Shown here: in pieces, positions 1 through 57,410 of the stretch
How positions within the stretch are numbered: position 1 is the first letter of the stretch
Layout: each line of letters starts with the position of its first letter
Assembly: GCF_029945685.1 (NCBI RefSeq)
Contig: NZ_JAQSDA010000027.1
Location: 248,001 to 312,000 of the forward strand
Source: Polaromonas sp.
GTDB lineage: Bacteria > Pseudomonadota > Gammaproteobacteria > Burkholderiales > Burkholderiaceae_C
Reading direction: 5' to 3'
DNA: 64,000 nt
The notes under the pieces: model-generated
What the model saw: only the letters and a program-made list of their open reading frames with translations
What the model was told of the DNA's origin: nothing
Database searches by the model: none
Made by a program: the position numbers and the translations under genes

Positions 1-1065
1 GGCTTCGATCAGGTTTTGCCCGCCCAGCGGCGCGAAGCTGCCGCCCAGCAGGGCCACGTCGCTCATGGCGTAATACAGCGCCATCTCGCCCAGCGAGTCG
101 CCGAGCCAGACATCGGCGGCCACGGGCGCATCGGCCCAGGAGGAGCGGCGCGACACCGAGAGCCCGTGTTTTTCCACCAGGGCCTGCACCTCGTCAAAAC
201 GCTGCGGGTGACGCGGCACGATCAGGATACGGAAGTCGGCGGTGGCCGGCGACGGCTCGCCGGTTGCTCCTTTTTCAGGAGCTGCTTGCGCCCGTGTGGA
301 AAGGGCCAGGGCCGTTACTTGATTTAAAAAATCGTCTTCCTCGCCCTCGCGCGAACTGGCCAGCATCAGCACCGGCCGGCCCCCCGCCTGGCGCCAGCGC
401 CGCCCGAGGTCCTGCTGCGCCGCATCGGGCGCGGCGTCGAACTTGAGGTTGCCGAACACCCCCTCTACCCTCGCACCGAGCTTGCGCAGGCGCTCGGCGT
501 CGTTGTCGCTCTGCGCGTACACCGCCGCCAGCGCCGCATAAGCCGGCCGCGACAGCCGCGCCATGCGCAGAGCCTGCTGCAGCGACTTGTCGGACAGGCG
601 CGCGTTGACCAGCACCAGCGGCACGCCGCGCGCCTGCGCGCCGGCCACGGTGTTGGGCCAGACCTCGGTTTCCAGCAGCAGGCCCAGGCGCGGCTTGAAG
701 TGTGTGAAAAAACGCGCCACGGCGGCCTGGCTGTCCCAGGGCTGCCAGACCTGCACGTCGCCCGCGCGCAGCAGGCCCGCGCCCTCCGCCCGGCCGGTGG
801 CCGTGCCATGGGTCAGCAGAATGCGAACCCCGGGCCAGCGCGTGCGCAGGGCCGCGAGCAAAATGCCCGCGGTGCGGGTTTCACCCAACGACACGGCGTG
901 CACCCACACCAGTTCGGAAGCGGTTTCAGCGGGCAGGGTGTAGTGGCCGAAGCGCTCCTCGATGGCATCCAGGTAACCCGGCTCGGCCAGACCGCGCCGA
1001 CGCAGCTTGCGCCGCAAAAAAGGCTGGGCCGCCCACATCAGCAGTGAATAAAGCTGGCGGATCAT
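1..1065 (-). CDS. waaA: 3-deoxy-D-manno-octulosonic acid (Kdo) transferase, 3' end cut by window edge
   Basis: Transfers Kdo from CMP-Kdo to lipid A at the cytoplasmic face of the inner membrane, the first step of LPS core assembly. 355 codons are visible; the family is usually about 420-430 residues, so the C-terminus lies outside the window. The reading frame starts MIRQLYSLLMWAAQPFLRRK, a membrane-anchoring N-terminus, continues with the glycosyltransferase-N region (WVHAVSLGET, LLLETEVWPN), and reaches the C-terminal motif LGGSFAPLGGQN that binds CMP-Kdo. The ATG overlaps the waaC stop by one base (TGATG), so the two are translationally coupled. Residues about 246-267 (ALSTRAQAAPEKG region) are encoded by a dispersed family A repeat and look like an insertion. 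Confidence 0.93.
   Translation of the reverse strand, partial: MIRQLYSLLMWAAQPFLRRKLRRRGLAEPGYLDAIEERFGHYTLPAETASELVWVHAVSLGETRTAGILLAALRTRWPGVRILLTHGTATGRAEGAGLLRAGDVQVWQPWDSQAAVARFFTHFKPRLGLLLETEVWPNTVAGAQARGVPLVLVNARLSDKSLQQALRMARLSRPAYAALAAVYAQSDNDAERLRKLGARVEGVFGNLKFDAAPDAAQQDLGRRWRQAGGRPVLMLASSREGEEDDFLNQVTALALSTRAQAAPEKGATGEPSPATADFRILIVPRHPQRFDEVQALVEKHGLSVSRRSSWADAPVAADVWLGDSLGEMALYYAMSDVALLGGSFAPLGGQNLIEA
266..330 (+). repeat. Family A short palindromic repeat, inside waaA
   Basis: The copy starts with a perfect hairpin, GCTCCT-TTTTC-AGGAGC. It continues CTGCTTGCGCCC, then AAGGGCC, and ends in an AT-rich TTGATTTAAAA tail. The same order of blocks is seen in the waaC copy at 1674-1736 and in intergenic copies at 31.56 and 34.94 kb. 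It lies in frame on the strand opposite to the waaA coding strand. Confidence 0.7.
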
Positions 1066-2249
1066 CAGGGAAGCGCTGCCCATTCGGACACCTGCGCCGG
1101 GAGCGGCAGGCAACTGAGCCATGCGTCCCAGACCGCCTGCACCGACGGCGTGGGCTGGGCAAAAACGCTGAGCTGGCGCGCGGCTCCTGCGCCCGCCGGC
1201 CGCGCTGAATCAGGCAGTGGCCCGGTACGCCAGGCGGTGTCAAAGTTGTAGATCTGCACATGCGGCAGGTCGAGGGCCACGGCGATGTGGCTCAGGCCGC
1301 TGTCCACACCGATGACGCCGGCACACTGCGCCAGATGCTGCGTCAGTGCGTCGAGCGCCAAACGCGGCCACACGATAGCGCCCCCACGCTCGTCACTTCG
1401 TGTGCCTGCGGCGGTTCCCTGCCCCTTGCAGGACGAAGAGGGGCGCTGCGCCTGCGGCCCGGCAAAGCCGGTTCCGCGGCCCCTGCTTGCAAGAGATCCC
1501 CCAAGCTCGTCATCAACGTTCAGGGCTGCGGCGATCGCCTGACTCGTCGCCAGTTCGTCCGTGCTGCCGTGCGGCAGGGCAATGCGGTAGCCCTGCGCAA
1601 TGAGCTGGCGGCCCAGCGTGACCCAGTTCTCCAGCGGCCACTGCTTGTCGGGGCGCGAGGTGCCATGCACGAATGCTATGGTTTCAGGAGCTGCCTGCGC
1701 ATGCTCCATAAGGGCCGGTGGCACTTTTAATCCAAAATCCGGAACCGGCGACAAGGTGTAGCCCAGGGCGCGCGCGCACAGCTCGCGCCCGCGCTGCATG
1801 GCGTGGATGTGCGGCGGCAGGGCAATCGCCACGTCGGCCACCCAGCGCGTCGGCGCTTCGTAGGCCGAGCCCTCGGTCTGGTTGGCCAGCGCATAACGCT
1901 TGCCGCCCGGCGCCAGCCGGGCCAGGCGCGCCACCAGGGCGGACTTGGTCAGGCCCTGCAGGTCGATCACCGCGTCATACGGCTGCGCCTGCAACTGCTT
2001 TTTGAAAGCGCCCCACCCGGCCCGCGTGGCCGCCGCCAGCGGCGCCTTGCGCCAGCGGCGCAACTCGCAGGGGATCACGTGCTGCACATGGCCGCTCGCC
2101 AGCAGCGGGGCCAGCAAAGGCGCAAAAGATTTTTCCACCACCCAGTCGATCTGCGCACCGGGACGCGCCGCCAGGATGTCCTGCACCACCGGCAGCGTGT
2201 GCACCACGTCGCCGAGCGACGACAGCTTGACGAGAAGTATCTTCACCAT
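1065..2249 (-). CDS. waaC: Lipopolysaccharide heptosyltransferase I with two repeat-encoded insertions
   Basis: Adds the first L-glycero-D-manno-heptose to Kdo2-lipid A, a cytoplasmic GT9-family enzyme. The start is set at MVKILLVKLSSLGDVVHTLP, the canonical family N-terminus; an upstream ATG at 2291 would add 14 residues unlike the family. Other family motifs are DLQGLTKSALVA, FVHGTSRPDKQWP and the sugar-nucleotide site GVDSGLSHIAVALDLP. The protein has 394 residues against about 320-330 usual. The excess maps to residues about 172-192 (family A repeat) and about 250-290 (family B repeat, peptide [14 protein letters not shown]), both between conserved motifs. It lies upstream of waaA in the same operon. 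Confidence 0.93.
   Translation of the reverse strand: MVKILLVKLSSLGDVVHTLPVVQDILAARPGAQIDWVVEKSFAPLLAPLLASGHVQHVIPCELRRWRKAPLAAATRAGWGAFKKQLQAQPYDAVIDLQGLTKSALVARLARLAPGGKRYALANQTEGSAYEAPTRWVADVAIALPPHIHAMQRGRELCARALGYTLSPVPDFGLKVPPALMEHAQAAPETIAFVHGTSRPDKQWPLENWVTLGRQLIAQGYRIALPHGSTDELATSQAIAAALNVDDELGGSLASRGRGTGFAGPQAQRPSSSCKGQGTAAGTRSDERGGAIVWPRLALDALTQHLAQCAGVIGVDSGLSHIAVALDLPHVQIYNFDTAWRTGPLPDSARPAGAGAARQLSVFAQPTPSVQAVWDAWLSCLPLPAQVSEWAALP
1381..1500 (+). repeat. Family B GC-rich repeat, inside waaC
   Basis: About 120 bp with CCCCCACGCTCGTCACTTCG at the left and the core CTGCGGCCCGGCAAAGCCGG then TTCCGCGGCCCCTGCT at the right. The core contains the hairpin CCGGC-AAA-GCCGG. It is nearly identical to blocks in ada-alkA (4229-4347), ogt (5941-6040) and the pepN-fbp gap (57318-57410). 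It is read through in frame by waaC on the minus strand. Confidence 0.8.
1674..1736 (+). repeat. Family A repeat, inside waaC
   Basis: GCTATGGTTTCAGGAGC followed by TGCCTGCGC, ATAAGGGCCGGTGGCAC and TTTTAATCC. It is aligned block for block with the waaA copy (266-330). It encodes waaC residues about 172-192 in frame. Confidence 0.65.
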
Positions 2250-2290
2250 GCGCCGGCCGCCCCAAGCAAGGCCAGCACTCTTGGGGGACA

Positions 2291-2315
2291 TCCTTCGACA
2301 AGCTCAGGACGAACG
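2291..2315. repeat. Short palindromic repeat of the TTCGACAAGCTCAGGACGAA type
   Basis: A 25-bp element, CCTTCGACAAGCTCAGGACG followed by AACGG, lies in the 88-bp gap between waaC and the phosphomutase gene. From general knowledge this motif is widespread between genes in proteobacteria. Only one copy was seen in this window. Confidence 0.5.
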
Positions 2316-2337
2316 GGATGTTGCGACCGTGGTGGCA

Positions 2338-3795
2338 TCAGTGCGCCGCAGCGGCAAAACTGGCATCGGGCTTGACGCTGCGCAGCAGGCCCAGCATGTC
2401 AGCCTGGATGCGCGCCAGCGCTTCCGGTGTGCGGCCTTCAAAACGCAGCACCAGCACCGGCGTGGTGTTGGAGGCGCGGATCAGGCCAAAGCCGTCGGCC
2501 CAGTCGATGCGCACGCCGTCTATCGTGGAAATCCTGGCACCGGCGTTGAGGGCTTCGCGCAGGGCGCTGGCGCCTGAGGGATCGGGGCCAGCCGGCGCAG
2601 GACCGGCATCGCGCATCGCCTCCATGGCCAGGGACACCAGCGCGTCGACCACGGTGTGCGGCTCGCCTTCCTTGCAGGCCACGTTGAGTTCGGGCGTGCT
2701 GAAGCTGGTGGGCAGGGCATTGAGCAGGGCGCCGGCGTCGGGCGAACGGCTCACGATTTCCAGCAGGCGGGCGCCGGCGTAGGTGCCGTCGTCAAAACCG
2801 AACCAGCGCTCCTTGAAGAAGATGTGGCCGCTCATCTCGCCGCCCAGCGGCGAATTGACCTCTTTCATCTTCGCCTTGATCAGCGAGTGGCCGGTGCGGT
2901 ACATCATGGGCACGCCGCCGGCGGCCTCGATCTCGGGGGCCAGGCGCTGCGAACACTTCACGTCGAACACGATGGCGCCGCCCGGCGCGCGCGACAGCAC
3001 ATCACGCGCAAACAGCATCATCTGGCGGTCGGGGTAGATGTTGTTGCCGTCACGCGTGACGATGCCGAGCCGGTCACCGTCGCCGTCGAAGGCCAGGCCC
3101 AGCTCTGCGTCGCCGGCCTGCAGCACGGTGATCAGGTCCTTGAGGTTTTCCGGCTTGCTCGGGTCGGGGTGGTGGTTCGGAAAGGTGCCGTCGACCTCGC
3201 TGAACAGCTCGGTCACCTCGCAGCCCAGCGCGCGGAAGATGTCCGGCGCCGACGCCCCGGCAATGCCGTTGCCCGAGTCAATGACAATTTTCATGGGCCG
3301 CGTGAGCTTGACGTCGGCCACGATGCGCTCGCGGTAGGCCGCGAGCACGTTGACCGGGGTGATGCTCCCCGCACGGGCGGGCGCGGCCCAGCCTTCGGCT
3401 TCCATGCTGCGGCGCAGGGCCTGGATGTCCTCGCCGTAAATGGCGCGGCCGGCCAGCACCATCTTGAAGCCGTTGTAGTCTTTCGGGTTGTGGCTGCCGG
3501 TGATCTGGATGCCGGAGCTGGCCAGCGTACTGGCCGCGAAATAAAGCATGGGCGTGGTGGCCATGCCGATGTCGATCACGTCCACGCCGCTGGCCGCCAG
3601 GCCGCGTATCAGCGCCGCGCTCAGGGCCGGCCCGCTCAGGCGCCCGTCGCGCCCCACCGCCACCGCCTTTTCACCCTGGGCCAGGGCGATGCTGCCGAAG
3701 GCCCGGCCCAGCGCCTCGGCGACCGGCTCATTGACAGTGGAGGGCACCACGCCGCGGATGTCGTAAGCTTTGAAAATGGATGCGTCAAGCTGCAT
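2338..3795 (-). CDS. Phosphomannomutase/phosphoglucomutase
   Basis: An alpha-D-phosphohexomutase of 485 residues (AlgC/ManB class) that interconverts sugar 1- and 6-phosphates. It feeds GDP-mannose and UDP-glucose synthesis for LPS and exopolysaccharide. The start MQLDASIFKAYDIRGVVP is the family N-terminus. The active phosphoserine loop is TGSHNPKDYNGFK, the magnesium loop is DGDGDRLG, the sugar-specificity loop is GEMSGHIFFKE, and the phosphate-binding C-terminal domain is RASNTTPVLVLRFEG. It is slightly longer than AlgC (about 460) because of a loop near AGPAPAGPDPSGA. The gap to the divergent ada-alkA gene is 112 bp. Whether mannose or glucose phosphate is preferred cannot be told from sequence. 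Confidence 0.93.
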   Translation of the reverse strand: MQLDASIFKAYDIRGVVPSTVNEPVAEALGRAFGSIALAQGEKAVAVGRDGRLSGPALSAALIRGLAASGVDVIDIGMATTPMLYFAASTLASSGIQITGSHNPKDYNGFKMVLAGRAIYGEDIQALRRSMEAEGWAAPARAGSITPVNVLAAYRERIVADVKLTRPMKIVIDSGNGIAGASAPDIFRALGCEVTELFSEVDGTFPNHHPDPSKPENLKDLITVLQAGDAELGLAFDGDGDRLGIVTRDGNNIYPDRQMMLFARDVLSRAPGGAIVFDVKCSQRLAPEIEAAGGVPMMYRTGHSLIKAKMKEVNSPLGGEMSGHIFFKERWFGFDDGTYAGARLLEIVSRSPDAGALLNALPTSFSTPELNVACKEGEPHTVVDALVSLAMEAMRDAGPAPAGPDPSGASALREALNAGARISTIDGVRIDWADGFGLIRASNTTPVLVLRFEGRTPEALARIQADMLGLLRSVKPDASFAAAAH

Positions 3796-3907
3796 GGGGT
3801 GGCCACTCCTGGGGTTGCGAAACAGCAGCGATTGTAGGCGCCGGGACTGTGAGGCAGATGTCCGGAAACGGCCAGTCAAAACCCGCCCGCCACGTATCAT
3901 CCAGCCC

Positions 3908-5560
3908 ATGACCCCGGACGCCACCCCTCTCGCCGACGACGCCTGCTACCTCGCGCTGAAAGCGCGGGACGCCCGCTTCGACGGCCGCTTTTTTACAGGT
4001 GTTACCTCCACCGGCATCTACTGCCGGCCGGTCTGCAGCGTCAAGACGCCCAAACGCGAGAACTGCCGCTTCTTCGGCCATGCGGCGCAGGCCGAAACCG
4101 CGGGTTTCCGGCCCTGCCTGCGCTGCCGGCCCGAACTGGCGCCGCACTCGGTGGTCTGGTCCATCCAGGACGCCTCTTACATTCTCGCGCACCAGGCGGC
4201 CCGCCTGCTGGACGAGCCCGAAGCTTGGGCCCCCTCGTTTGTCGCTTCGCGTGCCTACGGCGGTGCACTGCCCCTTGCACGAGGAAGAGGAGCGCTGCGC
4301 CTGCGGCCCGGCGAAGCCGGTTCCGCGGCCCCGGCTGGTGAAGAGGCAGCCTCCACGCTCGGTCGGGGCGGCACTTCGCCGCACGACACCGAGCCCACAG
4401 TGGCCGGTCTGGCCGCCAAGCTGGGCGTCAGCGACCGCCACGTGCGGCGGATTTTCGAGACGCAGTTCGGCGTGTCGCCCATGCAGTACCTGCAGACGCG
4501 CCGGCTGCTGACGGCCAAGCAGTTGCTGGCCGACACCGCGCTGCCGATCACGCAGATTGCGCTGATCAGCGGCTTCGCCAGCGTGCGGCGCTTCAACGCG
4601 GCCTTTGTCGGCCACTACGGCCTGAACCCGACGCAGATGCGGCGCCAGGGCGACACCTCGCCGGACGCCGGCATCACCGTCAGGCTCGGTTACCGCCCGC
4701 CGTATGACGTGGCAGCCATGACCGCTTTTTTCAGGAAGCGACAGATCAACGCTATCGAATTTGTAGCTGACGGCGCAGGCAGCGTAGGGATAGGGCGCAC
4801 TTTTCGCGTAGAAGCCGGCGGCAAGGTGCATGCCGGCTGGATCCACGCCAGCTTCGACGAAAGCCGCTGCCACGTCGCGCTGCGCATCAGCGACTCGCTG
4901 CGCGAGGTGTTGCCGCTGGTGATACGGCGGCTGCGCGCCATGCTCGACCTCGACGCCGACCCGCAGGCCATCAACAGCGTGCTGCACGCCTCTTTTCCGG
5001 GCGGCGACGGCCTGCGCGTACCCGGTGCGATGGACGGTTATGAACTCGCGGTGCGTGCGGTGCTGGGCCAGCAGATCACGGTGGCGGCCGCGCGCACGCT
5101 GGCGCAGCGCATGGTGGACAAATTCGGCGAACCGATTGAAACCCCCTGGCCCGCCCTGACGCGGCTTTTTCCTGCGGCGGCGGTGCTGGCGCAGGCCAGC
5201 GGCGACGCGCTGGGCCAGCTCGGCATTGTCAGGCAGCGGCAGACCGCCATCGTCGGCATTGCCCAGGCCGTGGCCGAAAAGCGCCTGCAACTGCATGGCG
5301 GCGCCGATGTCAACGCCACCATCGCCGCCTTGAAAGCCCTGCGCGGCATTGGCGACTGGACGGCGGAGTACATCGCGATGCGGGCACTGCGCTGGCCCGA
5401 CGCCTTTCCGTCCGGCGACGTGGCGCTGCACAAGGCGCTCGGCGTGCAGGGGCTGAAAAACCCAGCCAAGGAAGCCAGGCTCGCCTCGCTGGCCTGGAAG
5501 CCCTGGCGCAGTTACGCCGTGATCCGGGCCTGGAGCGGCGCGATGGAACCCACCGGCTGA
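3908..5560 (+). CDS. Ada N-domain / AraC HTH / AlkA DNA-3-methyladenine glycosylase fusion
   Basis: A 550-residue alkylation-damage protein. Residues 1-85 form the Ada metal-binding domain with four zinc cysteines C39, C43, C70 and C73 (YCRPVC, RPCLRC), which in Ada accepts a methyl group from DNA phosphotriesters. Residues about 150-230 are an AraC-type double HTH (LAAKLGVSDRHVRRIF, ITQIALISGFASVRRFNAAF). Residues about 255-550 are AlkA-type glycosylase with the helix-hairpin-helix LRGIGDWTAEYIAMRAL and likely catalytic D504 (PSGDVALHKAL). Start ATG 3908 puts the Ada domain at the expected position. Residues about 108-147 are repeat B, inserted between the first HTH helix and the next; about 282-300 resemble repeat A. 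ogt follows 249 bp downstream. It probably both senses and repairs alkylation damage. Confidence 0.93.
   Translation: MTPDATPLADDACYLALKARDARFDGRFFTGVTSTGIYCRPVCSVKTPKRENCRFFGHAAQAETAGFRPCLRCRPELAPHSVVWSIQDASYILAHQAARLLDEPEAWAPSFVASRAYGGALPLARGRGALRLRPGEAGSAAPAGEEAASTLGRGGTSPHDTEPTVAGLAAKLGVSDRHVRRIFETQFGVSPMQYLQTRRLLTAKQLLADTALPITQIALISGFASVRRFNAAFVGHYGLNPTQMRRQGDTSPDAGITVRLGYRPPYDVAAMTAFFRKRQINAIEFVADGAGSVGIGRTFRVEAGGKVHAGWIHASFDESRCHVALRISDSLREVLPLVIRRLRAMLDLDADPQAINSVLHASFPGGDGLRVPGAMDGYELAVRAVLGQQITVAAARTLAQRMVDKFGEPIETPWPALTRLFPAAAVLAQASGDALGQLGIVRQRQTAIVGIAQAVAEKRLQLHGGADVNATIAALKALRGIGDWTAEYIAMRALRWPDAFPSGDVALHKALGVQGLKNPAKEARLASLAWKPWRSYAVIRAWSGAMEPTG
4229..4347 (+). repeat. Family B repeat, inside ada-alkA
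   Basis: Left part GTCGCTTCGCGTGCCTACGG, centre CTGCCCCTTGCACGAGG, right part CTGCGCCTGCGGCCCGGCGA then AGCCGGTTCCGCGGCCCC. It encodes the peptide [18 protein letters not shown] in frame, nearly the same as [18 protein letters not shown] in Ogt. Confidence 0.8.
4751..4806 (+). repeat. Possible family A repeat, inside ada-alkA
   Basis: GCTAT-CGAATTT-GTAGC hairpin (one G-T pair), then GCGCAGGCAGCGTA, ATAGGGCGCAC and TTTTCG, the block order of family A. It is read in frame as AIEFVADGAGSVGIG near the start of the AlkA domain. It is less certain than the other copies because AlkA proteins also have coding constraint here. Confidence 0.45.
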
Positions 5561-5711
5561 CGGCCACCGCGATCCATGCGTTCAGGGAATGAATCAGGCG
5601 CTTCGATTTCATTGGACGGGAAGGCGCCGCCGCGCGACGATCAGCGGCGAATGATGGAGCTTCCTTTTTCCCTGAAATGTGTGCGGATGGATAAACAGCC
5701 ATGTCGCTTCT

Positions 5712-5745
5712 TATTTGATAGCAAACAAACCCCGTGCGCAAAGGG
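5712..5745. repeat. Partial family A repeat between ada-alkA and ogt
   Basis: The 248-bp gap between the two repair genes holds TATTTGATAGCAAAC followed by GTGCGCAAAGGG, a degenerate family A copy. Nothing else in the gap looks like a gene. Confidence 0.35.
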
Positions 5746-5808
5746 AAAAGGCCTCGCAGCAGCCTGAATACCAGGCGGGAACCCGAAACCATTCAAAAGG
5801 TGAACCCC

Positions 5809-6438
5809 ATGAAATTTGACCCCTCCATCGTTCAGACCACTTTTCAAAGCCCTCTGGGCAAGATGACCATTGCCGCGACCGACAAGGGCCTGGCCGGGCT
5901 CTGGTTCGAGGGCCAGCGCCATCTCCCACAAGAGTTGTTGGCCCCCACGCTCAGCACTGACGTGTCCTCGCTGCCCCCCGAGGGGGCGCTGCCCCTGCGG
6001 CCCGGCAAAGCCGGTTCCGCGGCCCCGGCTGGTAAAGAGAAAACCCCCACGCGTGCGGTATGGCCCAGCGATCCGGCACATCCGGTTCTCCAGCAGGTGA
6101 TGAGCCAACTGACCGAATACTTTACGGGCCAACGCACGCAATTCGACGTACCGCTGGACCTGGCCTACGGCACGGCTTTCCAGCAATCGGTCTGGCAGGC
6201 ACTGCTGAAAATCCCGCAAGGCGGCACCGCCAGCTACGGCGAAGTGAGCCAGCGCATCGGCAAACCAGCCGCCGTGCGCGCCGTGGGTGCCGCCGTCGGC
6301 CGCAACCCGGTCAGCATCATCGTGCCCTGCCACCGCGTGATGGGTGCCAACGGTGCGCTGACAGGTTACGCCGGCGGGCTGGACCGAAAAACCGCCCTGC
6401 TCAAGCTTGAAGGCGTTCTTCAGGAGCACCGGCTGTGA
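5809..6438 (+). CDS. ogt: Methylated-DNA-[protein]-cysteine S-methyltransferase with repeat-encoded insertion
   Basis: Suicide repair protein that removes methyl groups from O6-methylguanine and O4-methylthymine. It has 209 residues; the family is usually 160-175. The C-terminal active domain is intact, with the acceptor cysteine C174 in IVPCHRVMG and the DNA-binding segment [22 protein letters not shown]. Start ATG 5809 gives [19 protein letters not shown], the usual N-terminal domain. Residues about 45-78, between the two domains, are encoded by repeat B. It is functionally paired with the upstream Ada-AlkA regulator. Its stop overlaps the GTG start of the next gene by four bases (GTGA). 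Confidence 0.93.
5941..6040 (+). repeat. Family B repeat, inside ogt
   Basis: GCCCCCACGCTCAGCACTGA, then CTGCCCCCCGAGGGGGCGCT (a near-perfect hairpin), then GCGGCCCGGCAAAGCCGG and TTCCGCGGCCCCGGCTGGTA. The whole block is translated in frame in Ogt. Confidence 0.82.
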
Positions 6439-40188: not shown

Positions 40189-40680
40189 TCAATCAGCAAG
40201 CGCGCAATGGACCGATTTTGCACCCAGCAGGTCCACACACACCTGCGGCGCGATGCGAACGAGGTAACCGCGCCGGCCGCCGTTGATGGCGATTTCAGGC
40301 AGGGCCAGGATGCTTTCCTCGATATACACCGGCATCACCTTGCGCGTGCCAAACGGCGAGGTGCCGCCAACGAGGTAGCCGCTGTGCCGGTTGGCAACCT
40401 CGGGCTTGCAGGGCTCGACCGACTTGGCGCCGATCTGGCGCGCCAGGTTTTTGGTCGACACCTTGCGGTTGCCGTGCATCAGCACCAGCAGCGGTTTGGC
40501 GTCCTGGTCCTGCATGACCAGGGTCTTGACCACGGTGAAAGGATCGAACCCGAGCACCTCGGCACTGTGCTGCGCGCCGCCATGCTCCAGGTACTCGTAC
40601 GGATGCTCAGTGAAAGCCACACCGGCAGCCTTCAACATCTGCGTTGCCGGTGTCTCTGACACATGTTCTTTTTTGCCCAC
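40189..40680 (-). CDS. ybaK: Cys-tRNA(Pro)/Cys-tRNA(Cys) deacylase, YbaK/EbsC family
   Basis: 163-residue editing protein that removes cysteine from mischarged tRNA-Pro. Typical blocks: TQMLKAAGVAFTEHPYEYLE, GFDPFTVVKTLVMQ, VLMHGNRKVSTKNLARQIGA and SGYLVGGTSPFGTRKVMPVY with the GTSP motif. It precedes plsY on the same strand. Confidence 0.92.
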   Translation of the reverse strand: MGKKEHVSETPATQMLKAAGVAFTEHPYEYLEHGGAQHSAEVLGFDPFTVVKTLVMQDQDAKPLLVLMHGNRKVSTKNLARQIGAKSVEPCKPEVANRHSGYLVGGTSPFGTRKVMPVYIEESILALPEIAINGGRRGYLVRIAPQVCVDLLGAKSVHCALAD

Positions 40681-40703: not shown

Positions 40704-40765
40704 GCGCGGAACCGGCTTAGCCGGGCCGCAGGTGGCGCCCCCTTGCGGGCTGAGAGGCCGCGGCT
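40704..40765 (-). repeat. Family B repeat (partial), intergenic
   Basis: GCGGAACCGGCTTAGCCGGG and CCGCAGG is the reverse complement of the family B core; GGTGGCGCCCCCTTGCGGGC follows. It fills part of the gap between ybaK and the aldo-keto reductase gene. Confidence 0.7.
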
Positions 40766-42928: not shown

Positions 42929-44068
42929 ATGCGACTTTCCACCTTTCTCCGATCGAACGCTGAAGAAATCCTCACCGCGTGGGACGAATTCGCCGCCACC
43001 GTGGCACACGACGGAACCATGATGGACAAGAAGGACTTGCGCGATCACGCGGGCGAAATCCTCGCCGCCATTGCCAACGATCTGGAGCAACCCCAGACCG
43101 CTGCCGAACAGGAAGAAAAGTCGCGGGGCGAAAGCAAGCAGCCCCAGGGAGCGCTCGAGACAGCGGCCGAGACCCACGCCGACACACGCATGGTGTCGGG
43201 CTTTGCCATCGACGCCATGATCACCGAGTACCGCGCCCTGCGGGCCAACGTCGTGCATCTCTGGACCTCCGCAGGCGGCGGACAGGACCACCAGAACGAC
43301 ATGCGCGACCTGATCCGCTTCAATGAAGCGATGGACCAGGCGATTGCCGAATCTGTCGCGCGATACACCGACCAGACGAAAAAATCCACGGACCTGTTCA
43401 TCGGCATCCTCGGCCATGACATCCGCAATCCGCTGGGCACGATTTCCATGTCCGCACAATACCTGGTGCGCTCCGGCCAGCTGGCGGCCCATGCAGCGGA
43501 CGCCATCATCAACAGCGTGGTGCGCATCAACCGGGTGATCGAACATGTGGTGGATTTCACGCGCGCCCAGTCCGAAGGCCTGATGCCCATCAAGCCCAGC
43601 CCGGGCAACCTGGTCAACCAGTTCGAAAAAGTCGTGGAAGAAACCCGTGTACGCAATCCGAAGGCCACCGTGCGCCTGGAAAGCACCGGGGATTTCAACG
43701 GCATCTGGGACGAAGGCCGCATGGGGCAGCTCCTGTCCAACCTGCTGACCAATGCCATTTCCTACGGCGCGCGCGACAAGCCCGTCACCGTGCGCCTGTG
43801 GGAGCAGCAGGACAAGGTGGTTTTTTCAGTCCATAACCTGGGCACACCAATTCCCGTGCAGGAGCAGCAACAGATCTTCAAGCCGCTGGTTCGCGGCCAG
43901 GTTCCTGCCAAGGCCGAGCAACGGGAGCCGACCGGCCTGGGCCTGGGCCTGTTCATCTGCCAGGAAATCGTTCGGGCGCACGGCGGAAGCATCGCTGTTT
44001 CCTCGGACGCCACCAGCGGGACGTCGTTTACCGTGACCCTGCCCCGCACGCCGGTGGCCCCGAAATAA
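42929..44068 (+). CDS. Cytosolic sensor histidine kinase with RsbRD-like N-terminus
   Basis: 379 residues without membrane segments. Residues about 10-150 resemble the RsbT co-antagonist (RsbRD) sensor domain (ILTAWDEFAATVAHDGTMMD, DAMITEYRALRANVVHLWTS). HisKA has H163 in LGHDIRNPLGTISMSAQYLV, and the HATPase domain has QLLSNLLTNAISYG, VHNLGTPIPVQEQQQIFKPL and GLGLGLFICQEIVRAHGG. There is no adjacent response regulator, so it is an orphan kinase. RsbRD modules are known from stress-response control. Confidence 0.88.
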   Translation: MRLSTFLRSNAEEILTAWDEFAATVAHDGTMMDKKDLRDHAGEILAAIANDLEQPQTAAEQEEKSRGESKQPQGALETAAETHADTRMVSGFAIDAMITEYRALRANVVHLWTSAGGGQDHQNDMRDLIRFNEAMDQAIAESVARYTDQTKKSTDLFIGILGHDIRNPLGTISMSAQYLVRSGQLAAHAADAIINSVVRINRVIEHVVDFTRAQSEGLMPIKPSPGNLVNQFEKVVEETRVRNPKATVRLESTGDFNGIWDEGRMGQLLSNLLTNAISYGARDKPVTVRLWEQQDKVVFSVHNLGTPIPVQEQQQIFKPLVRGQVPAKAEQREPTGLGLGLFICQEIVRAHGGSIAVSSDATSGTSFTVTLPRTPVAPK

Positions 44069-44074
44069 ATAGGC

Positions 44075-44260
44075 TCACCCCTGTTGGCGCTCGCTGCGCG
44101 TAGCGCCCCCTCCCCTTCCAGGGGACGGCGCCTGCAGCCTGGCAAAGCCAAAAAACTTGGTTCACCCCTGTTGGCGCTCGCTTCGCGTAGCACCCTCTCC
44201 CCTTCCAGGGGACGGCGCCTGCAGCCTGGCAAAGCCAGATCTGCGGCCCCTGCTGGTAAA
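44075..44260. repeat. Tandem pair of a family B-related repeat
   Basis: Two near-identical 76-bp copies (44075-44150 and 44162-44237, period 87) share TCACCCCTGTTGGCGCTCGC, CTCCCCTTCCAGGGGACGGC and GCCTGCAGCCTGGCAAAGCC. The second is followed by TGCGGCCCCTGCTGGTAAAG, the right end of family B. The hairpin CCCCTTCCAGGGG lies in each unit. They fill the 202-bp gap between the convergent histidine kinase and acyl-CoA ligase genes. Confidence 0.85.
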
Positions 44261-44270
44261 GAAAGACTGT

Positions 44271-46097
44271 TCAGCCCGCCTGGCGGAAGCGTTCTTCCTC
44301 CTGCAGCCTGAGCACGCGCCGCTGCACCTTGCCGGTGGTGGTCATCGGCAGCGCATCGATGAACTCGATCTCCTTGGGGTACTCGTAGGGCGCCAGCAGG
44401 CCCTTGACGTGGGCCTGCAGTTCAGCCGTCAACTTGAGGTCAAATTGGGCTTCAGCCCCCGCCCGACTTGCGCGAGCCGCTACAAAATCAGGAGCAAGCA
44501 CAATGAAGGCCTTGACCACGGCGCCGCGTTCGCGGTCGGGCTTGGGCACCACCGCCGCGTTCGCCACCGCCGGGTGCTTGACCAGGCAGTTCTCGATCTC
44601 GCCGGGGCCGATGCGGTAGCCGGCGGCCTTGAACACGTCGTCAGCCCGGCCTTCGTACCAGAGGTAACCGTCTTCGTCGCGTGTCGCCAGGTCGCCGGTG
44701 CGGCACCAGTCGCCGGTGAACTTGGCGCGCGTGGCGCCTTCCTTTTTCCAGTAACCCAGAAAGAAGATCGGGTCCGGATCGCCATGGACGTCGTAGCGAT
44801 TGACCGACACGTCCCCCGGCACACCGACAGCGCATTCCCGGCCCTCGTCGTCGATCACCGCCACGCGGTGGCCCGGGTAGCCCTTGCCCATGCTGCCGGG
44901 CCGCGCCGGCCACAGGGCCGAGCAGTTGCCGACCACGTAGTTGATTTCGGTCTGCCCGAACATCTCGTTGACCAGCACACCGAGTTCGTCGCGGGAGTAC
45001 GCAAACACGGCGTCGCCAACCGCTTCGCCGGCGCTCATCATGGCTTGCAGCTTGAGCTTGAAGTGGCGGCGCGGGTGCGGATAGGCCTTCATCATGGCTT
45101 TGAGCGCGGTCGGGAACAGGAAGGTGTGCGTGACGCCCTGCTGCGCCATCAGCGTGAAGGCCAGCTCGGGACTGAAGCGCCCGTTGAAGGCGACGATGGG
45201 GCGGCCGAAATACAGCGTGGGCAGCAAGGCGTCCATCAGCCCGCCGGTCCAGGCCCAGTCTGCGGGGCTCCAGAAGACCGCGCGGCTGTCCTCCCTCACC
45301 CCGGCCCTCTCCCCGAGGGAGAGGGAGGAATCAGCCCCCTCTCCCGCTTGCGGGAGAGGGTGGGGGTGAGGGCTGAACCCGAACCAGTTCTGGCTGCAGA
45401 CAAAACCCGGCAGATTGCCGATCAGCGCCCGGTGCGCCAGCAAGGCGCCCTTGGGCGGGCCGGTCGTGCCGCTGGTGTAGATCAGGATGGCCGCATCGTC
45501 GGCCCTGGTTTTCACAGCGGTGAAGCTGCGTTGCTGCGCCGCCAGGGCGGCTTCGTAGTCCAGGTCGCCCTGGCCGGCCGCCGCGCCGGCCGCGATGACC
45601 GTGCGCAGGGCCGGGCAGCGGCTGCGGATGGTGTTGACGCTGGCGATGGAGTTTTCATCACAGATGGCCAGCACCGCATCGCTGTCCTGCAGCCGGTACT
45701 CCAGCGCCTCGGGGCCGAACAGCATGGACAGCGGCATGGCCACCGCACCCATCTGGAACACCGCCATGTAGGCCACGGCGGTCTCGAAACGCTGCGGCAT
45801 CACAATCGCCACCCGGTCGCCGCGCTGCACGCCCAGCTGCACCAGCACATGGCTCAGCGCGTCGGCGGCCTGCTGCAGCTGGACATAGGTATAAAAAGTG
45901 GTTGAAGCCCCCGTCTGGTGGGCGCGGATAGCTACTCTTTCAGGAGCGTTTTTGCCACTGCCGGCCGCCCAGCGCCGGCAGCAGACGTCGGCGATGTTGA
46001 AGTACTCGTCCACCTGCCAGCGAAAGCCCTGGTGCAGGGCGGCGTAATGGTCGGGCTGCCGCGCGGCGGCCTTGTCCCTGTCTTGACTGCGCTTCAA
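44271..46097 (-). CDS. AMP-forming acyl-CoA synthetase with repeat-encoded insertions
   Basis: 608-residue ligase of the medium-chain/Acs-like ANL group. P-loop ILIYTSGTTGPPKGALLAHR, VNEMFGQTEINYVVGNC, DWCRTGDLATRDEDGYLWYE, DDVFKAAGYRIGPGEIENCL, catalytic lysine MTTTGKVQRRVL. The start is taken as TTG 46097 because AAGGAG lies seven bases upstream; ATG 46124 would put this SD inside the gene and overlap the divergent hydrolase start. Relatives are about 540-560 residues. Residues about 241-268 (HPHPLPQAGEGADSSLSLGE) come from repeat C; residues about 535-553 and 50-69 overlap family A copies. All are in frame. Confidence 0.88.
   Translation of the reverse strand: MKRSQDRDKAAARQPDHYAALHQGFRWQVDEYFNIADVCCRRWAAGSGKNAPERVAIRAHQTGASTTFYTYVQLQQAADALSHVLVQLGVQRGDRVAIVMPQRFETAVAYMAVFQMGAVAMPLSMLFGPEALEYRLQDSDAVLAICDENSIASVNTIRSRCPALRTVIAAGAAAGQGDLDYEAALAAQQRSFTAVKTRADDAAILIYTSGTTGPPKGALLAHRALIGNLPGFVCSQNWFGFSPHPHPLPQAGEGADSSLSLGERAGVREDSRAVFWSPADWAWTGGLMDALLPTLYFGRPIVAFNGRFSPELAFTLMAQQGVTHTFLFPTALKAMMKAYPHPRRHFKLKLQAMMSAGEAVGDAVFAYSRDELGVLVNEMFGQTEINYVVGNCSALWPARPGSMGKGYPGHRVAVIDDEGRECAVGVPGDVSVNRYDVHGDPDPIFFLGYWKKEGATRAKFTGDWCRTGDLATRDEDGYLWYEGRADDVFKAAGYRIGPGEIENCLVKHPAVANAAVVPKPDRERGAVVKAFIVLAPDFVAARASRAGAEAQFDLKLTAELQAHVKGLLAPYEYPKEIEFIDALPMTTTGKVQRRVLRLQEEERFRQAG
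44441..44495 (-). repeat. Family A repeat, inside the acyl-CoA synthetase gene
   Basis: Minus strand GCTCCTGATTTTGTAGCGGC then TCGCGCAAG, GGGGGCTGAAGCCCAATTTG. It is translated as APDFVAARASRAGAEAQFD between the conserved AFIVL strand and LTAELQAHVK helix of the C-terminal domain. Confidence 0.65.
45294..45376. repeat. Family C REP-like double hairpin, inside the acyl-CoA synthetase gene
   Basis: CCCTCACCCCGGCCCTCTCC, CCGAGGGAGAGGG, then CCCCTCTCCCGCTTGCGGGA and GAGGGTGGGGGTGAGGG. Two hairpins (CTCTCCCCGAGGGAGAG and CTCTCCCGCTTGCGGGAGAG) are nested within a larger inverted repeat. Such elements are usually intergenic in proteobacteria. Here it is read in frame between QNWFG and SRAVFWSPADW. 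Confidence 0.88.
45891..45948 (-). repeat. Possible family A repeat near the acyl-CoA synthetase 5' end
   Basis: Minus strand GCTCCTGAAAGAGTAGCTAT, CCGCGCCC, GGGGGCTTCAACC, ACTTTTTATA. It encodes APERVAIRAH, also a normal peptide for this family, but with codons (AGA, GTA, GCT) unlike the rest of the gene. This suggests the repeat was accepted where the peptide fitted. Confidence 0.45.
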
Positions 46098-46123
46098 ATC
46101 GGCTCTCCTTATGATGGGCATCA

Positions 46124-47038
46124 ATGTACAAAGAAAAACGTCTTTCCCGCAGCGAGTATGTCCCTATACGCGGCATCAACTACCACGTGCTTCACTGGGG
46201 CGAAGCCCAAAGCAAGCTCCCGCCCCTGGTGCTGGTGCACGGCTGGATGGACGTGGCCGCGTCCTACCAGTTTGTCGTCGACGCTCTGTCCGACGCTTTT
46301 GCGCAGGGCCGGACCATCCTGGCGCCCGACTGGCGCGGCTACGGGAAAACCGGTAGCGCGGGGGCCGACAACTTCTGGTTCCCCGACTATCTGGCCGACC
46401 TCGATTTCCTGCTTGACCATTACGCCCCGGGCCAGCCGGTGGACCTGGTCGGCCACAGCATGGGCGGCAATGTGGCCATGCTTTACGCCGGCGTGCGGCC
46501 CGAACGCATCCGCAAGCTGGTCAATCTCGAAGGTTTCGGCATGCCCGCGACCCGGCCCAGCCAGGCGCCCGGGCGTTTTGCCAAATGGATGGACGAGCTC
46601 AAAAGCCTGCACCAGGGCGAGATGGCGCTCAAACCCTACAACGACGTGGACGGCGTGGCCCGGCGCCTGATGCGGACCAACCCCCGGCTGTCCCAGGACA
46701 AGGCCGACTGGCTGGCCCGGCACTGGGCCGCGCCCGACGCGCAGGGCCAGTGGCGCATTCTGGGCGACGCGGCCCACAAGATCACCAATGCCCAGCTTTA
46801 CCGTGTCGACGAGGTGCTGGAGATTTACCAGCGCATCAGCGCGCCCACCCTGGCAGTCGAAGCCTCCGACGACTCACTGGGCAAATGGTGGGAGGGTAAA
46901 TACACCCTGGCCCAGTACCATGAGCGCCTGCAGTCGGTGCCGCAGCTGACCACCGCAGTGGTCCAGGACGCCGGCCACATGCTGCACCATGACCAGCCGG
47001 AGCCACTGGCGCGCCTGTTTGAAGACTTTCTCGGTTAG
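46124..47038 (+). CDS. Alpha/beta-fold hydrolase
   Basis: 304 residues. Motifs: LVLVHGWMDVAASYQFV (oxyanion HGW), nucleophile serine in DLVGHSMGGNVAML, aspartate in VEASDDSLGKWW, histidine in VVQDAGHMLHHDQPE. Resembles epoxide hydrolase or serine-hydrolase-like proteins of the Abhydrolase_1 family. Divergent from the acyl-CoA synthetase gene, with start codons about 27 bp apart. The substrate is unknown. Confidence 0.88.
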   Translation: MYKEKRLSRSEYVPIRGINYHVLHWGEAQSKLPPLVLVHGWMDVAASYQFVVDALSDAFAQGRTILAPDWRGYGKTGSAGADNFWFPDYLADLDFLLDHYAPGQPVDLVGHSMGGNVAMLYAGVRPERIRKLVNLEGFGMPATRPSQAPGRFAKWMDELKSLHQGEMALKPYNDVDGVARRLMRTNPRLSQDKADWLARHWAAPDAQGQWRILGDAAHKITNAQLYRVDEVLEIYQRISAPTLAVEASDDSLGKWWEGKYTLAQYHERLQSVPQLTTAVVQDAGHMLHHDQPEPLARLFEDFLG

Positions 47039-57315: not shown

Positions 57316-57317
57316 AT

Positions 57318-57410
57318 GGCCCCCACGCTTGTCACTTCGTGTACTACGCTGCCCCCCGCGGGGGCCGCTGCGCCTGCGGCCCGGCTAAGCCGGTTCCGCG
57401 GCCCCTGCTG
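57318..57410 (+). repeat. Family B repeat between pepN and fbp
   Basis: GGCCCCCACGCTTGTCACTT, CTGCCCCCCGCGGGGGCCGC (hairpin), CTGCGGCCCGGCTAAGCCGG, TTCCGCGGCCCCTGCTGAAA. This is a complete intergenic copy, free of coding constraint, and it defines the full length of the element (about 93-120 bp). Confidence 0.85.

What the first reader, a model, noticed from the sequence alone, without database searches (positions are those of the whole stretch)
1381..6040. Family B palindromic repeats read in frame inside three neighbouring genes
A GC-rich element of about 100-120 bp with two hairpins occurs between pepN and fbp and, partly, beside ybaK. It also lies inside the open frames of waaC (1381-1500), ada-alkA (4229-4347) and ogt (5941-6040). 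In ada-alkA and ogt it encodes nearly the same peptide ([18 protein letters not shown] and [18 protein letters not shown]); in waaC it is read from the other strand ([14 protein letters not shown]). The proteins are 30-60 residues longer than relatives, and the inserts fall between domains or in loops. This resembles the protein-coding palindromic elements of Rickettsia but in a betaproteobacterium. I know of no such description in this group.
Basis: partly seen in the sequence, partly recalled or inferred. Interest (0 to 1): 0.85.

Follow-up and report, generated by a model that had tools for sequence, protein, structure and literature searches.

The report
Hairpin repeats read inside conserved proteins
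In a free-living Polaromonas bacterium, a short hairpin-forming DNA repeat that normally sits just after genes has also landed inside several genes, where it is read in frame as an extra loop in conserved enzymes, much like a phenomenon best known from Rickettsia.

Summary
A GC-rich element of about 90-120 bp lies inside waaC, ada-alkA and ogt. It belongs to a genome-wide family: 86 cores at up to 3 mismatches, 0 for the reversed pattern. Of 95 cores read in context (up to 4 mismatches), 8, in 7 genes, lie in a frame that scores as coding on both sides; no clear frame-breaking insertion was found. In sister species the WaaC, Ada and Ogt sites are mostly empty, with 7-12 residues instead of 44-60; MetX, a hydrolase and GlnE also have empty orthologues. 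The genus is Polaromonas. AlphaFold models two inserts as unstructured loops. Outside genes, 55 of 63 copies with a same-strand upstream gene start at its stop codon. No target duplication and no RAYT link was found. The kind is known: Rickettsia palindromic elements, intragenic REPs, enterobacterial RUs. BRE, a beta-proteobacterial repeat reported in Polaromonas JS666 and inside coding sequences, is probably the same family; sequences could not be compared. New: empty-site proof, stop-codon anchoring, subtype turnover.

The parts
1380..1496 (+). element copy inside waaC (gene on - strand; element read in frame -1: [36 protein letters not shown])
1498..1512 (+). partial direct repeat of the element's left end just after the waaC copy; G064 keeps a single similar stretch here, as a deletion between the two would leave
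1065..2249 (-). waaC (heptosyltransferase, Glyco_transf_9), 394 aa from the MVKILL start, with a 39-residue insert
4228..4347 (+). element copy inside ada-alkA, read in frame +0 ([39 protein letters not shown])
3908..5560 (+). ada-alkA, 550 aa; insert between Ada_Zn_binding (13-76) and HTH_18 (168-247)
5940..6040 (+). element copy inside ogt, read in frame +0 ([33 protein letters not shown])
6044..6054 (+). partial direct repeat of the left end (CCCCCACGCGT) after the ogt copy
5809..6438 (+). ogt (O6-methylguanine-DNA methyltransferase), 209 aa, with a 36-residue insert
40705..40749 (-). partial copy beside the ybaK-like gene (40189-40680, -)
44120..44149 (+). short partial copy of the right part
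44178..44262 (+). divergent copy between two convergent ORFs (42929-44068 + and 44271-46124 -)

Best explanation
This is a dispersed, normally non-coding, REP-like mosaic element with three stem regions, probably the Polaromonas form of the beta-proteobacterial repeat BRE. Its usual home is the first few nucleotides after a gene's stop codon, in the gene's own orientation, where it would form a hairpin cluster in the mRNA. Copies also enter coding regions. Most such insertions should be harmful and be lost. Those that survive have a whole-codon length, no stop in the frame read, and a position in a surface loop or linker, so the ribosome reads through and the protein carries about 35-130 extra, probably disordered residues. 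Shown: the family, the in-frame copies, empty orthologous sites, presence and absence between species, different subtypes at one site, different copy numbers inside FemAB and Ada, covariation. Inferred: that the element moved in (rather than being lost from relatives) at most sites; that filled and empty alleles also spread by homologous recombination; that loss occurs by recombination between the flanking partial direct repeats; that the extended proteins are made and work. Not known: the enzyme that makes new copies; my guess is an activity acting on the hairpins in single-stranded DNA.
For: Genome-wide family with clean control. 8 of 95 cores inside 7 predicted genes, all in a frame coding on both sides. 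Of 67 coding frames running towards the other copies, 64 stop before the element and none of the 3 that do not is a clear broken gene. Empty sites: WaaC filled in 1 of 15 relatives spanning the site; Ada in 7 of 29 (3 with this element, 4 with its left part and another right part); Ogt full in 3 of 28, plus 1 remnant and 2 with the left half reversed. MetX empty in 6 of 6 relatives; hydrolase empty in 6 of 7; GlnE empty in 4 of 5; FemAB filled in 7 of 7 with different copy number. Intergenic sites too are filled or empty, with different subtypes at one site (5 sites aligned of 6 searched). Two inserts modelled without secondary structure at low confidence, most of the rest of the fold confident. 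Post-stop anchoring 55 of 63 here and 19 of 22 in the best-matching loci of two other genus genomes, where 3 of 30 loci, all in one genome, are again in-gene. Covariation: outer stem of hairpin 1 paired in 78% of cells against shuffle mean 58%, maximum 67%; core stem 98.6% against mean 97.2%, maximum 98.1%.
Against: No mobilising enzyme was found. The only Y1 transposase-like gene (PF01797) has no core within 1.5 kb at up to 8 mismatches; a genus genome with 0 cores has such a gene and one with 15 cores (79% complete) has none. No target-site duplication was seen, and flanks often change together with the insertion, so clean transposition is not shown. FemAB gives no empty site among the 7 relatives compared. 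Single-copy folding is not better than shuffles, and the core stem exceeds its shuffles only narrowly. Expression and activity of the extended proteins were not tested. Gene calls rest on a codon model trained on long ORFs of this genome; the hairpin-1 figures are for the 64 of 95 copies in which the inner stem was found.
Confidence: 0.77

Rival explanations
1. The element is a MITE moved by an IS transposase in trans, with terminal inverted repeats and target duplications.
For: Size of about 100 bp, high copy number, presence and absence between species. A review names Polaromonas among bacteria with MITEs, citing the JS666 genome paper (PMC10969869, passages).
Against: No target duplication at 3 genic and 5 intergenic sites aligned. 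No full-length copy in 72,556 plasmid records and no match in 50,697 phage records, where IS-moved MITEs might be expected. An autonomous element with matching ends was not searched for.
Confidence: 0.12
2. A REP/RAYT system: the element is mobilised by a Y1-type tyrosine transposase acting on single-stranded hairpins.
For: Palindromic units, mosaic make-up and position right after stop codons are like REPs (PMC12306157 and PMC3733652). One PF01797 gene exists in the genome, and 15 of 16 genus genomes searched have at least one.
Against: The gene here is not flanked by the element. PF01797 occurs in G013, which has 0 cores, and in 5 of 9 genomes of other families, all with 0 cores; G011 has 15 cores and no match, though it is only 79% complete.
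Confidence: 0.13
3. The repeated peptide is a selected protein module, spread because the peptide itself is useful.
For: Ada, Ogt, MetX, GlnE and FemAB carry nearly the same peptide.
Against: WaaC and the hydrolase read the other strand, an exodeoxyribonuclease III-like protein in another genome carries a different peptide from the right half, most copies are not in genes, the two inserts modelled look disordered, and most relatives lack them.
Confidence: 0.06
4. No movement: the filled alleles are ancestral and relatives lost the sequence, or filled alleles were imported whole by recombination.
For: G064 waaC looks like a deletion scar, filled Ada alleles share the right flank across species, and the ogt right flank of the window is close to an empty allele. 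FemAB is filled in 7 of 7 relatives.
Against: MetX is filled here and empty in 6 of 6; most Ada and Ogt alleles in 28-29 genomes are short. Loss and import can explain single sites, not the dispersion.
Confidence: 0.15

Closest known systems
BRE, beta-proteobacterial repeat element (PMC3110155; passages and section 14 read)
   Same: About 90 bp (75-91 in Bordetella), GC-rich, chromosomal, mostly intergenic, tandem copies, highest count in Polaromonas sp. JS666 (29), some copies entirely within coding sequences. Here: similar size and habits, and matches to the element in 247 of 398 genomes of the GTDB family.
   Different: The published alignment is a figure and was not readable, so sequence identity is not shown. 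Mean GC of 77 copies here is 78% (72-83%) against the published 69% (63.7-78.9%) for Bordetella. The window copies carry a right-hand hairpin that is abundant only in the genus. In the section I read, in-frame reading and empty orthologues are not analysed.
Rickettsia palindromic elements, RPE (seen through passages of PMC10969869 and PMC3733652; the one original paper I asked for is not held)
   Same: Palindromic repeats (~150 bp in the review) inserted in frame in unrelated genes.
   Different: Free-living betaproteobacterium, GC-rich, only 8 of 95 copies in genes, strong post-stop preference. Sequences were not compared.
GTAG/CGTC REPs inside ORFs (PMC3733652, section 15 read)
   Same: Mostly intergenic, close to the 3' end of the upstream gene, some fully inside ORFs, many of them DNA synthesis and repair genes.
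   Different: Units of 20-40 bp with tetranucleotide tags; here a unit of about 90 bp with three stem regions and no RAYT link found.
Enterobacterial RU elements with ORFs (PMC2759123, abstract and outline only)
   Same: Small mobile sequences found intragenically with the repeat's amino-acid sequence kept.
   Different: Other hosts; sequences not compared.

Membership tests
BRE | about 75-91 bp, repeated, chromosomal, mostly intergenic with some in coding sequences | tested here: met
BRE | GC content near 69% (63.7-78.9% in Bordetella) | tested here: inconclusive
   mean 78%, range 72-83% in 77 copies: at or above the top of the published range
BRE | present across Betaproteobacteria with high copy number in Polaromonas JS666 | tested here: inconclusive
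   matches in 247 of 398 family genomes; 55 matches in G058, whose main contig has the length I recall for JS666; the name is not confirmed by a call
BRE | sequence homology to the published BRE alignment | not testable with these tools
   sequences only in a figure and an additional file
Rickettsia palindromic elements | in-frame insertion into unrelated conserved genes with uninterrupted orthologues | tested here: met
Rickettsia palindromic elements | sequence membership in a named RPE family | not tested
   no RPE sequences were fetched; host lineage differs
REP/BIME | palindromic extragenic repeats near gene 3' ends | tested here: met
   55 of 63 at a same-strand stop codon (7 of 23 for opposite-strand genes); 86 of 95 not inside genes, 1 at a region edge
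REP/BIME | association with a RAYT (Y1) transposase gene | tested here: not met
REP/BIME | GTAG/GGAG or CGTC tag at the foot of the hairpin | not tested
   no tag scan was run
MITE | terminal inverted repeats with target-site duplication | tested here: inconclusive
   no duplication at 8 aligned sites, but boundaries are blurred by flank changes
Rfam RNA family | match to a curated covariance model | tested here: not met
   6 loci with copies, both strands, E up to 1: only a tRNA

The most novel reading that the evidence does not exclude
The family leads a double life. One subtype (extra C, TGCTTGA tail with a stop in frame +0) stays after stop codons and acts on translation termination or mRNA 3' ends. 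Another (single C, stop-free GGCTGG tail, unit of 102 bp) is coding-compatible and acts as a spreading source of new protein linkers, including in alkylation-repair genes, so that repeat turnover tunes the proteins. In-gene copies: 7 of 8 single-C against 29 of 87 others (Fisher p = 0.004), 7 of 8 GGCTGR tail against 20 of 87, +0 stop 0 of 8 against 45 of 87. Plain purifying selection on in-gene copies could give the same numbers.
Probability: 0.2. Interest if true: 0.75.

Novelty: new variant of a known kind. Interest (0 to 1): 0.52.

Why it matters
Protein-coding palindromes are best known from obligate intracellular Rickettsia. A free-living genus with dozens of related genomes, filled and empty sites in sister species, and insertions in assayable enzymes (Ada, Ogt, MetX, GlnE, WaaC) makes it testable how a non-coding hairpin becomes protein, how often that is tolerated, and why such elements sit right behind stop codons. 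It also warns annotators: such inserts look like lineage-specific domains but are repeat DNA.

Tried and rejected
RAYT link: the single PF01797 gene (C14:37356) has no core within 1.5 kb at up to 8 mismatches, and PF01797 occurs also without the element. Not supported, not excluded.

Rfam: only a tRNA in 6 loci. Folding of 4 window copies: not better than shuffles. Plasmids and phages: no full-length match; one Variovorax record with the left 60 nt.

Frame-breaking insertions: for the 87 copies not scored as in-gene I followed coding frames running towards the element on both strands. 64 of 67 stop before it; 2 of the other 3 are weak opposite-strand signals without coding beyond, and the third (C25:359402) stops 11 nt past the estimated start, right at the element's edge. 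The test misses short or badly scored genes.

Rows dropped: of 6 intergenic sites searched 5 were aligned. The sixth, C12:49423, looks by hit coordinates filled in G042, G064 and G004 and empty in G066 and G071, but was not aligned. Two rows (marked G004b) may be paralogous loci. In one search GlnE was compared in 5 of the 7 genomes. Part of the output was cut; the counts come.

Papers: the searches listed no paper that I recognised as describing in-frame copies with empty orthologues in Polaromonas; I opened only a few of those listed. The library lacks most subscription journals; the JS666 genome paper and a Rickettsia RPE paper are not held.
Full report
What was checked. The window lies at G000:C27:248001-312000 of a 4.74-Mb genome in 28 contigs. 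BLAST inside the window finds the element at waaC (about 1380-1496), ada-alkA (4228-4347), ogt (5940-6040), 57317-57410, and partial copies at 40705-40749, 44120-44149 and 44178-44262. In the whole genome the 57318 copy has 44 reported matches, 40 of 225 first-look candidates being scored. The 32-nt core occurs 86 times at up to 3 mismatches against 0 for the pattern read backwards.

Where the copies lie. I took the DNA round these hits and the window (78 merged regions, 366,702 bases) and found 95 cores at up to 4 mismatches, 86 of them at up to 3. A codon model trained on long ORFs of these regions finds 8 cores in a frame that is open and scores as coding on both sides. A gene-calling step with the same model puts the same 8 inside genes. 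They are waaC, ada and ogt of the window, plus C7:96441, C14:13015, C28:376695 and a tandem pair 102 bp apart at C25:192317/192419. Two are read from the opposite strand (waaC and C14:13015). Pfam gives Glyco_transf_9 for WaaC; Ada_Zn_binding (13-76), HTH_18 (168-247), AlkA_N and HhH-GPD for Ada; Methyltransf_1N and DNA_binding_1 for Ogt; Abhydrolase_1 for C7:96441 and C14:13015; FemAB_like for the C25 protein. That C7:96441 is MetX and C28:376695 is GlnE is my reading of the sequences; GlnE was not given to Pfam. Of 67 coding frames that run towards the other 87 copies, 64 stop before the element, and none of the other 3 is a clear broken gene.

Position relative to genes. Of the other 87 copies one lay at a region edge. 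For the remaining 86, the gene on the element's 5' side is on the same strand in 63 and on the opposite strand in 23. In 55 of the 63 the estimated element start lies between 25 nt before and 15 nt after that gene's end (median 4 nt after it in the largest class, 49 copies); for opposite-strand genes it is 7 of 23, and on the 3' side only 5 of 86. A limited sample from two further genus genomes, the 30 best-matching loci with the codon model of this genome, agrees: 19 of 22 same-strand cases, 5 opposite-strand, 3 inside genes, all three in G024 and none of 15 in G058. By my reading these three genes encode a flavoprotein hydroxylase fusion, exodeoxyribonuclease III and an RND transporter.

Empty sites. 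Anchoring on conserved residues either side, the WaaC stretch is 48 residues here, 52 in G004, and 7-11 in the other 14 of 15 relatives that span the site. The Ada linker is 60 here and filled in 7 of 29: G014 (137), G066 (60) and G004 (53) with this element, G010 (41), G054 (40), G017 (37) and G016 (32) with its left part and another right part; the rest are 9, or 12-20 through alignment shift. The Ogt stretch is 44 here, full in 3 of 28 (G004, G064, G066), a 19-residue remnant in G050, a 38-residue reversed left half in G063 and G044, and 8-12 in the other 22 (DNA alignment). MetX is empty in 6 of 6 relatives compared, the hydrolase in 6 of 7, GlnE in 4 of 5 (shared with G064). FemAB is filled in 7 of 7, mostly with one or two copies, and a third insert of another subtype appears only here and in G017. 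In named records of other genomes, proteins recovered whole are 327-359 aa for WaaC (20), 492-544 for Ada (32) and 164-239 for Ogt (51), against 394, 550 and 209 here; Ogt length alone therefore does not set this protein apart.

Movement and turnover. Five intergenic sites compared with up to five close relatives are filled in some and empty in others, or filled by different subtypes in different species. Flanks often change with the insertion and no target duplication is visible. In waaC, G064 keeps one copy of a stretch that flanks the insert here on both sides, as a deletion between direct repeats would leave. Identity along 5.7 kb is patchy: the ada insert region resembles G066 most, the ogt right flank the empty G042, which suggests recombination between filled and empty alleles. 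This is inference.

Structure. Among 46 distinct cores the main stem is paired in 98.6% of cells (1000 shuffles: mean 97.2%, maximum 98.1%), with changes on both sides in 2 of 9 pairs. The outer stem of hairpin 1 is paired in 78% of cells against a shuffle mean of 58% and maximum of 67%, in the 64 of 95 copies where the inner stem was found. Single copies do not fold better than shuffles, and Rfam has no match to the element in 6 loci. AlphaFold models of Ogt (30 sequences, mean pLDDT 86) and WaaC (21 sequences, mean pLDDT 83) give the inserts low confidence (55-61 in Ogt residues 51-80, under 50 in WaaC 256-285) and no secondary structure; most of the rest is confident, apart from WaaC 126-129 and 385-394.

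Coding fit. In-gene copies are mostly single-C forms (7 of 8 against 29 of 87; Fisher p = 0.004) with a GGCTGR tail (7 of 8 against 20 of 87), and none has a stop in frame +0 (0 of 8 against 45 of 87). Selection against harmful insertions is enough to explain this.

Range. One relative, G010, is identical over 2,352 nt to a record named Polaromonas sp. RGN.2, so the genus is Polaromonas. The core is found in 22 of 41 genomes searched: 22 of 25 of the genus and 0 of 16 from other families of the order. In 299 genomes of the GTDB family 71 have some core match, at most 15 per genome outside the genus; the four genus members in that sample have 86, 84, 49 and 1. Parts of the element are much wider: 247 of 398 family genomes (8 of them of the genus) match at E up to 1e-8, only about 2 candidates per genome being scored, and the listed matches mostly cover the first 47-66 nt. 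In 21 of 23 such loci that I read, one of them from the genus, another right part follows. No full-length match on plasmids, none on phages.

Comparison with print. PMC3110155 describes BRE, whose size, tandem habit, chromosomal location, host range and occasional place inside coding sequences fit (section 14 read). Its GC content in Bordetella (69%) is lower than here (78%), and the sequences could not be compared. PMC3733652 reports REPs within ORFs, many of DNA synthesis and repair genes, and REPs close to gene 3' ends (section 15). PMC12306157 cites work that REPs fewer than 16 nt from a stop codon can downregulate translation in E. coli (passages). PMC10969869 summarises RPEs (passages). 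So the kind is known; the detail here is new as far as the searches named in Tried and rejected show.

Verdict. A real, genome-wide, REP-like element, probably BRE, read in frame in seven genes of this genome; most likely selfish or regulatory DNA tolerated in loops. How it copies itself remains open.

Noticed in passing
window 45290-45390, inside ORF 44271-46124 (-): Another palindromic repeat (ccctctccccgagggagaggg...) appears to be read in frame inside an acyl-CoA synthetase-like gene (peptide FSPHPHPLPQAGEGADSSLSLGERAGVRE), seen by eye only.
   Followed up: no
L212 and L217 (G063, G044), ogt loop: The same Ogt loop holds the left half of the element in reverse orientation with another right part, so this loop seems to accept repeats repeatedly.
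   Followed up: partly
L220 (G014), ada linker: Ada carries a 137-residue linker with several tandem copies, a coding variable-number repeat.
   Followed up: partly
window 2287-2318 and L205 (G004) waaC insert: A second repeat-like stretch (ccttcgaca[ag]gctcaggacgaacgg) lies behind waaC here and, by its peptide, within the waaC insert of G004; seen by eye.
   Followed up: no
window ada, ogt; L305 (G024): Three in-gene hosts are DNA-repair genes (Ada, Ogt, an exodeoxyribonuclease III-like gene), as was remarked for intragenic REPs in PMC3733652; not tested against the share of such genes.
   Followed up: no
L100 (CALPVM020000129.1): The record is titled Akkermansia muciniphila but encodes WaaC, Pgm and Ogt relatives of Comamonadaceae type next to each other, so the bin is probably mislabelled or contaminated.
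   Followed up: no
L171 (G000:C14:37356-37682): The genome's only PF01797 (Y1 transposase-like) match lies upstream of a gltB-like gene (by eye) without repeat copies nearby.
   Followed up: partly
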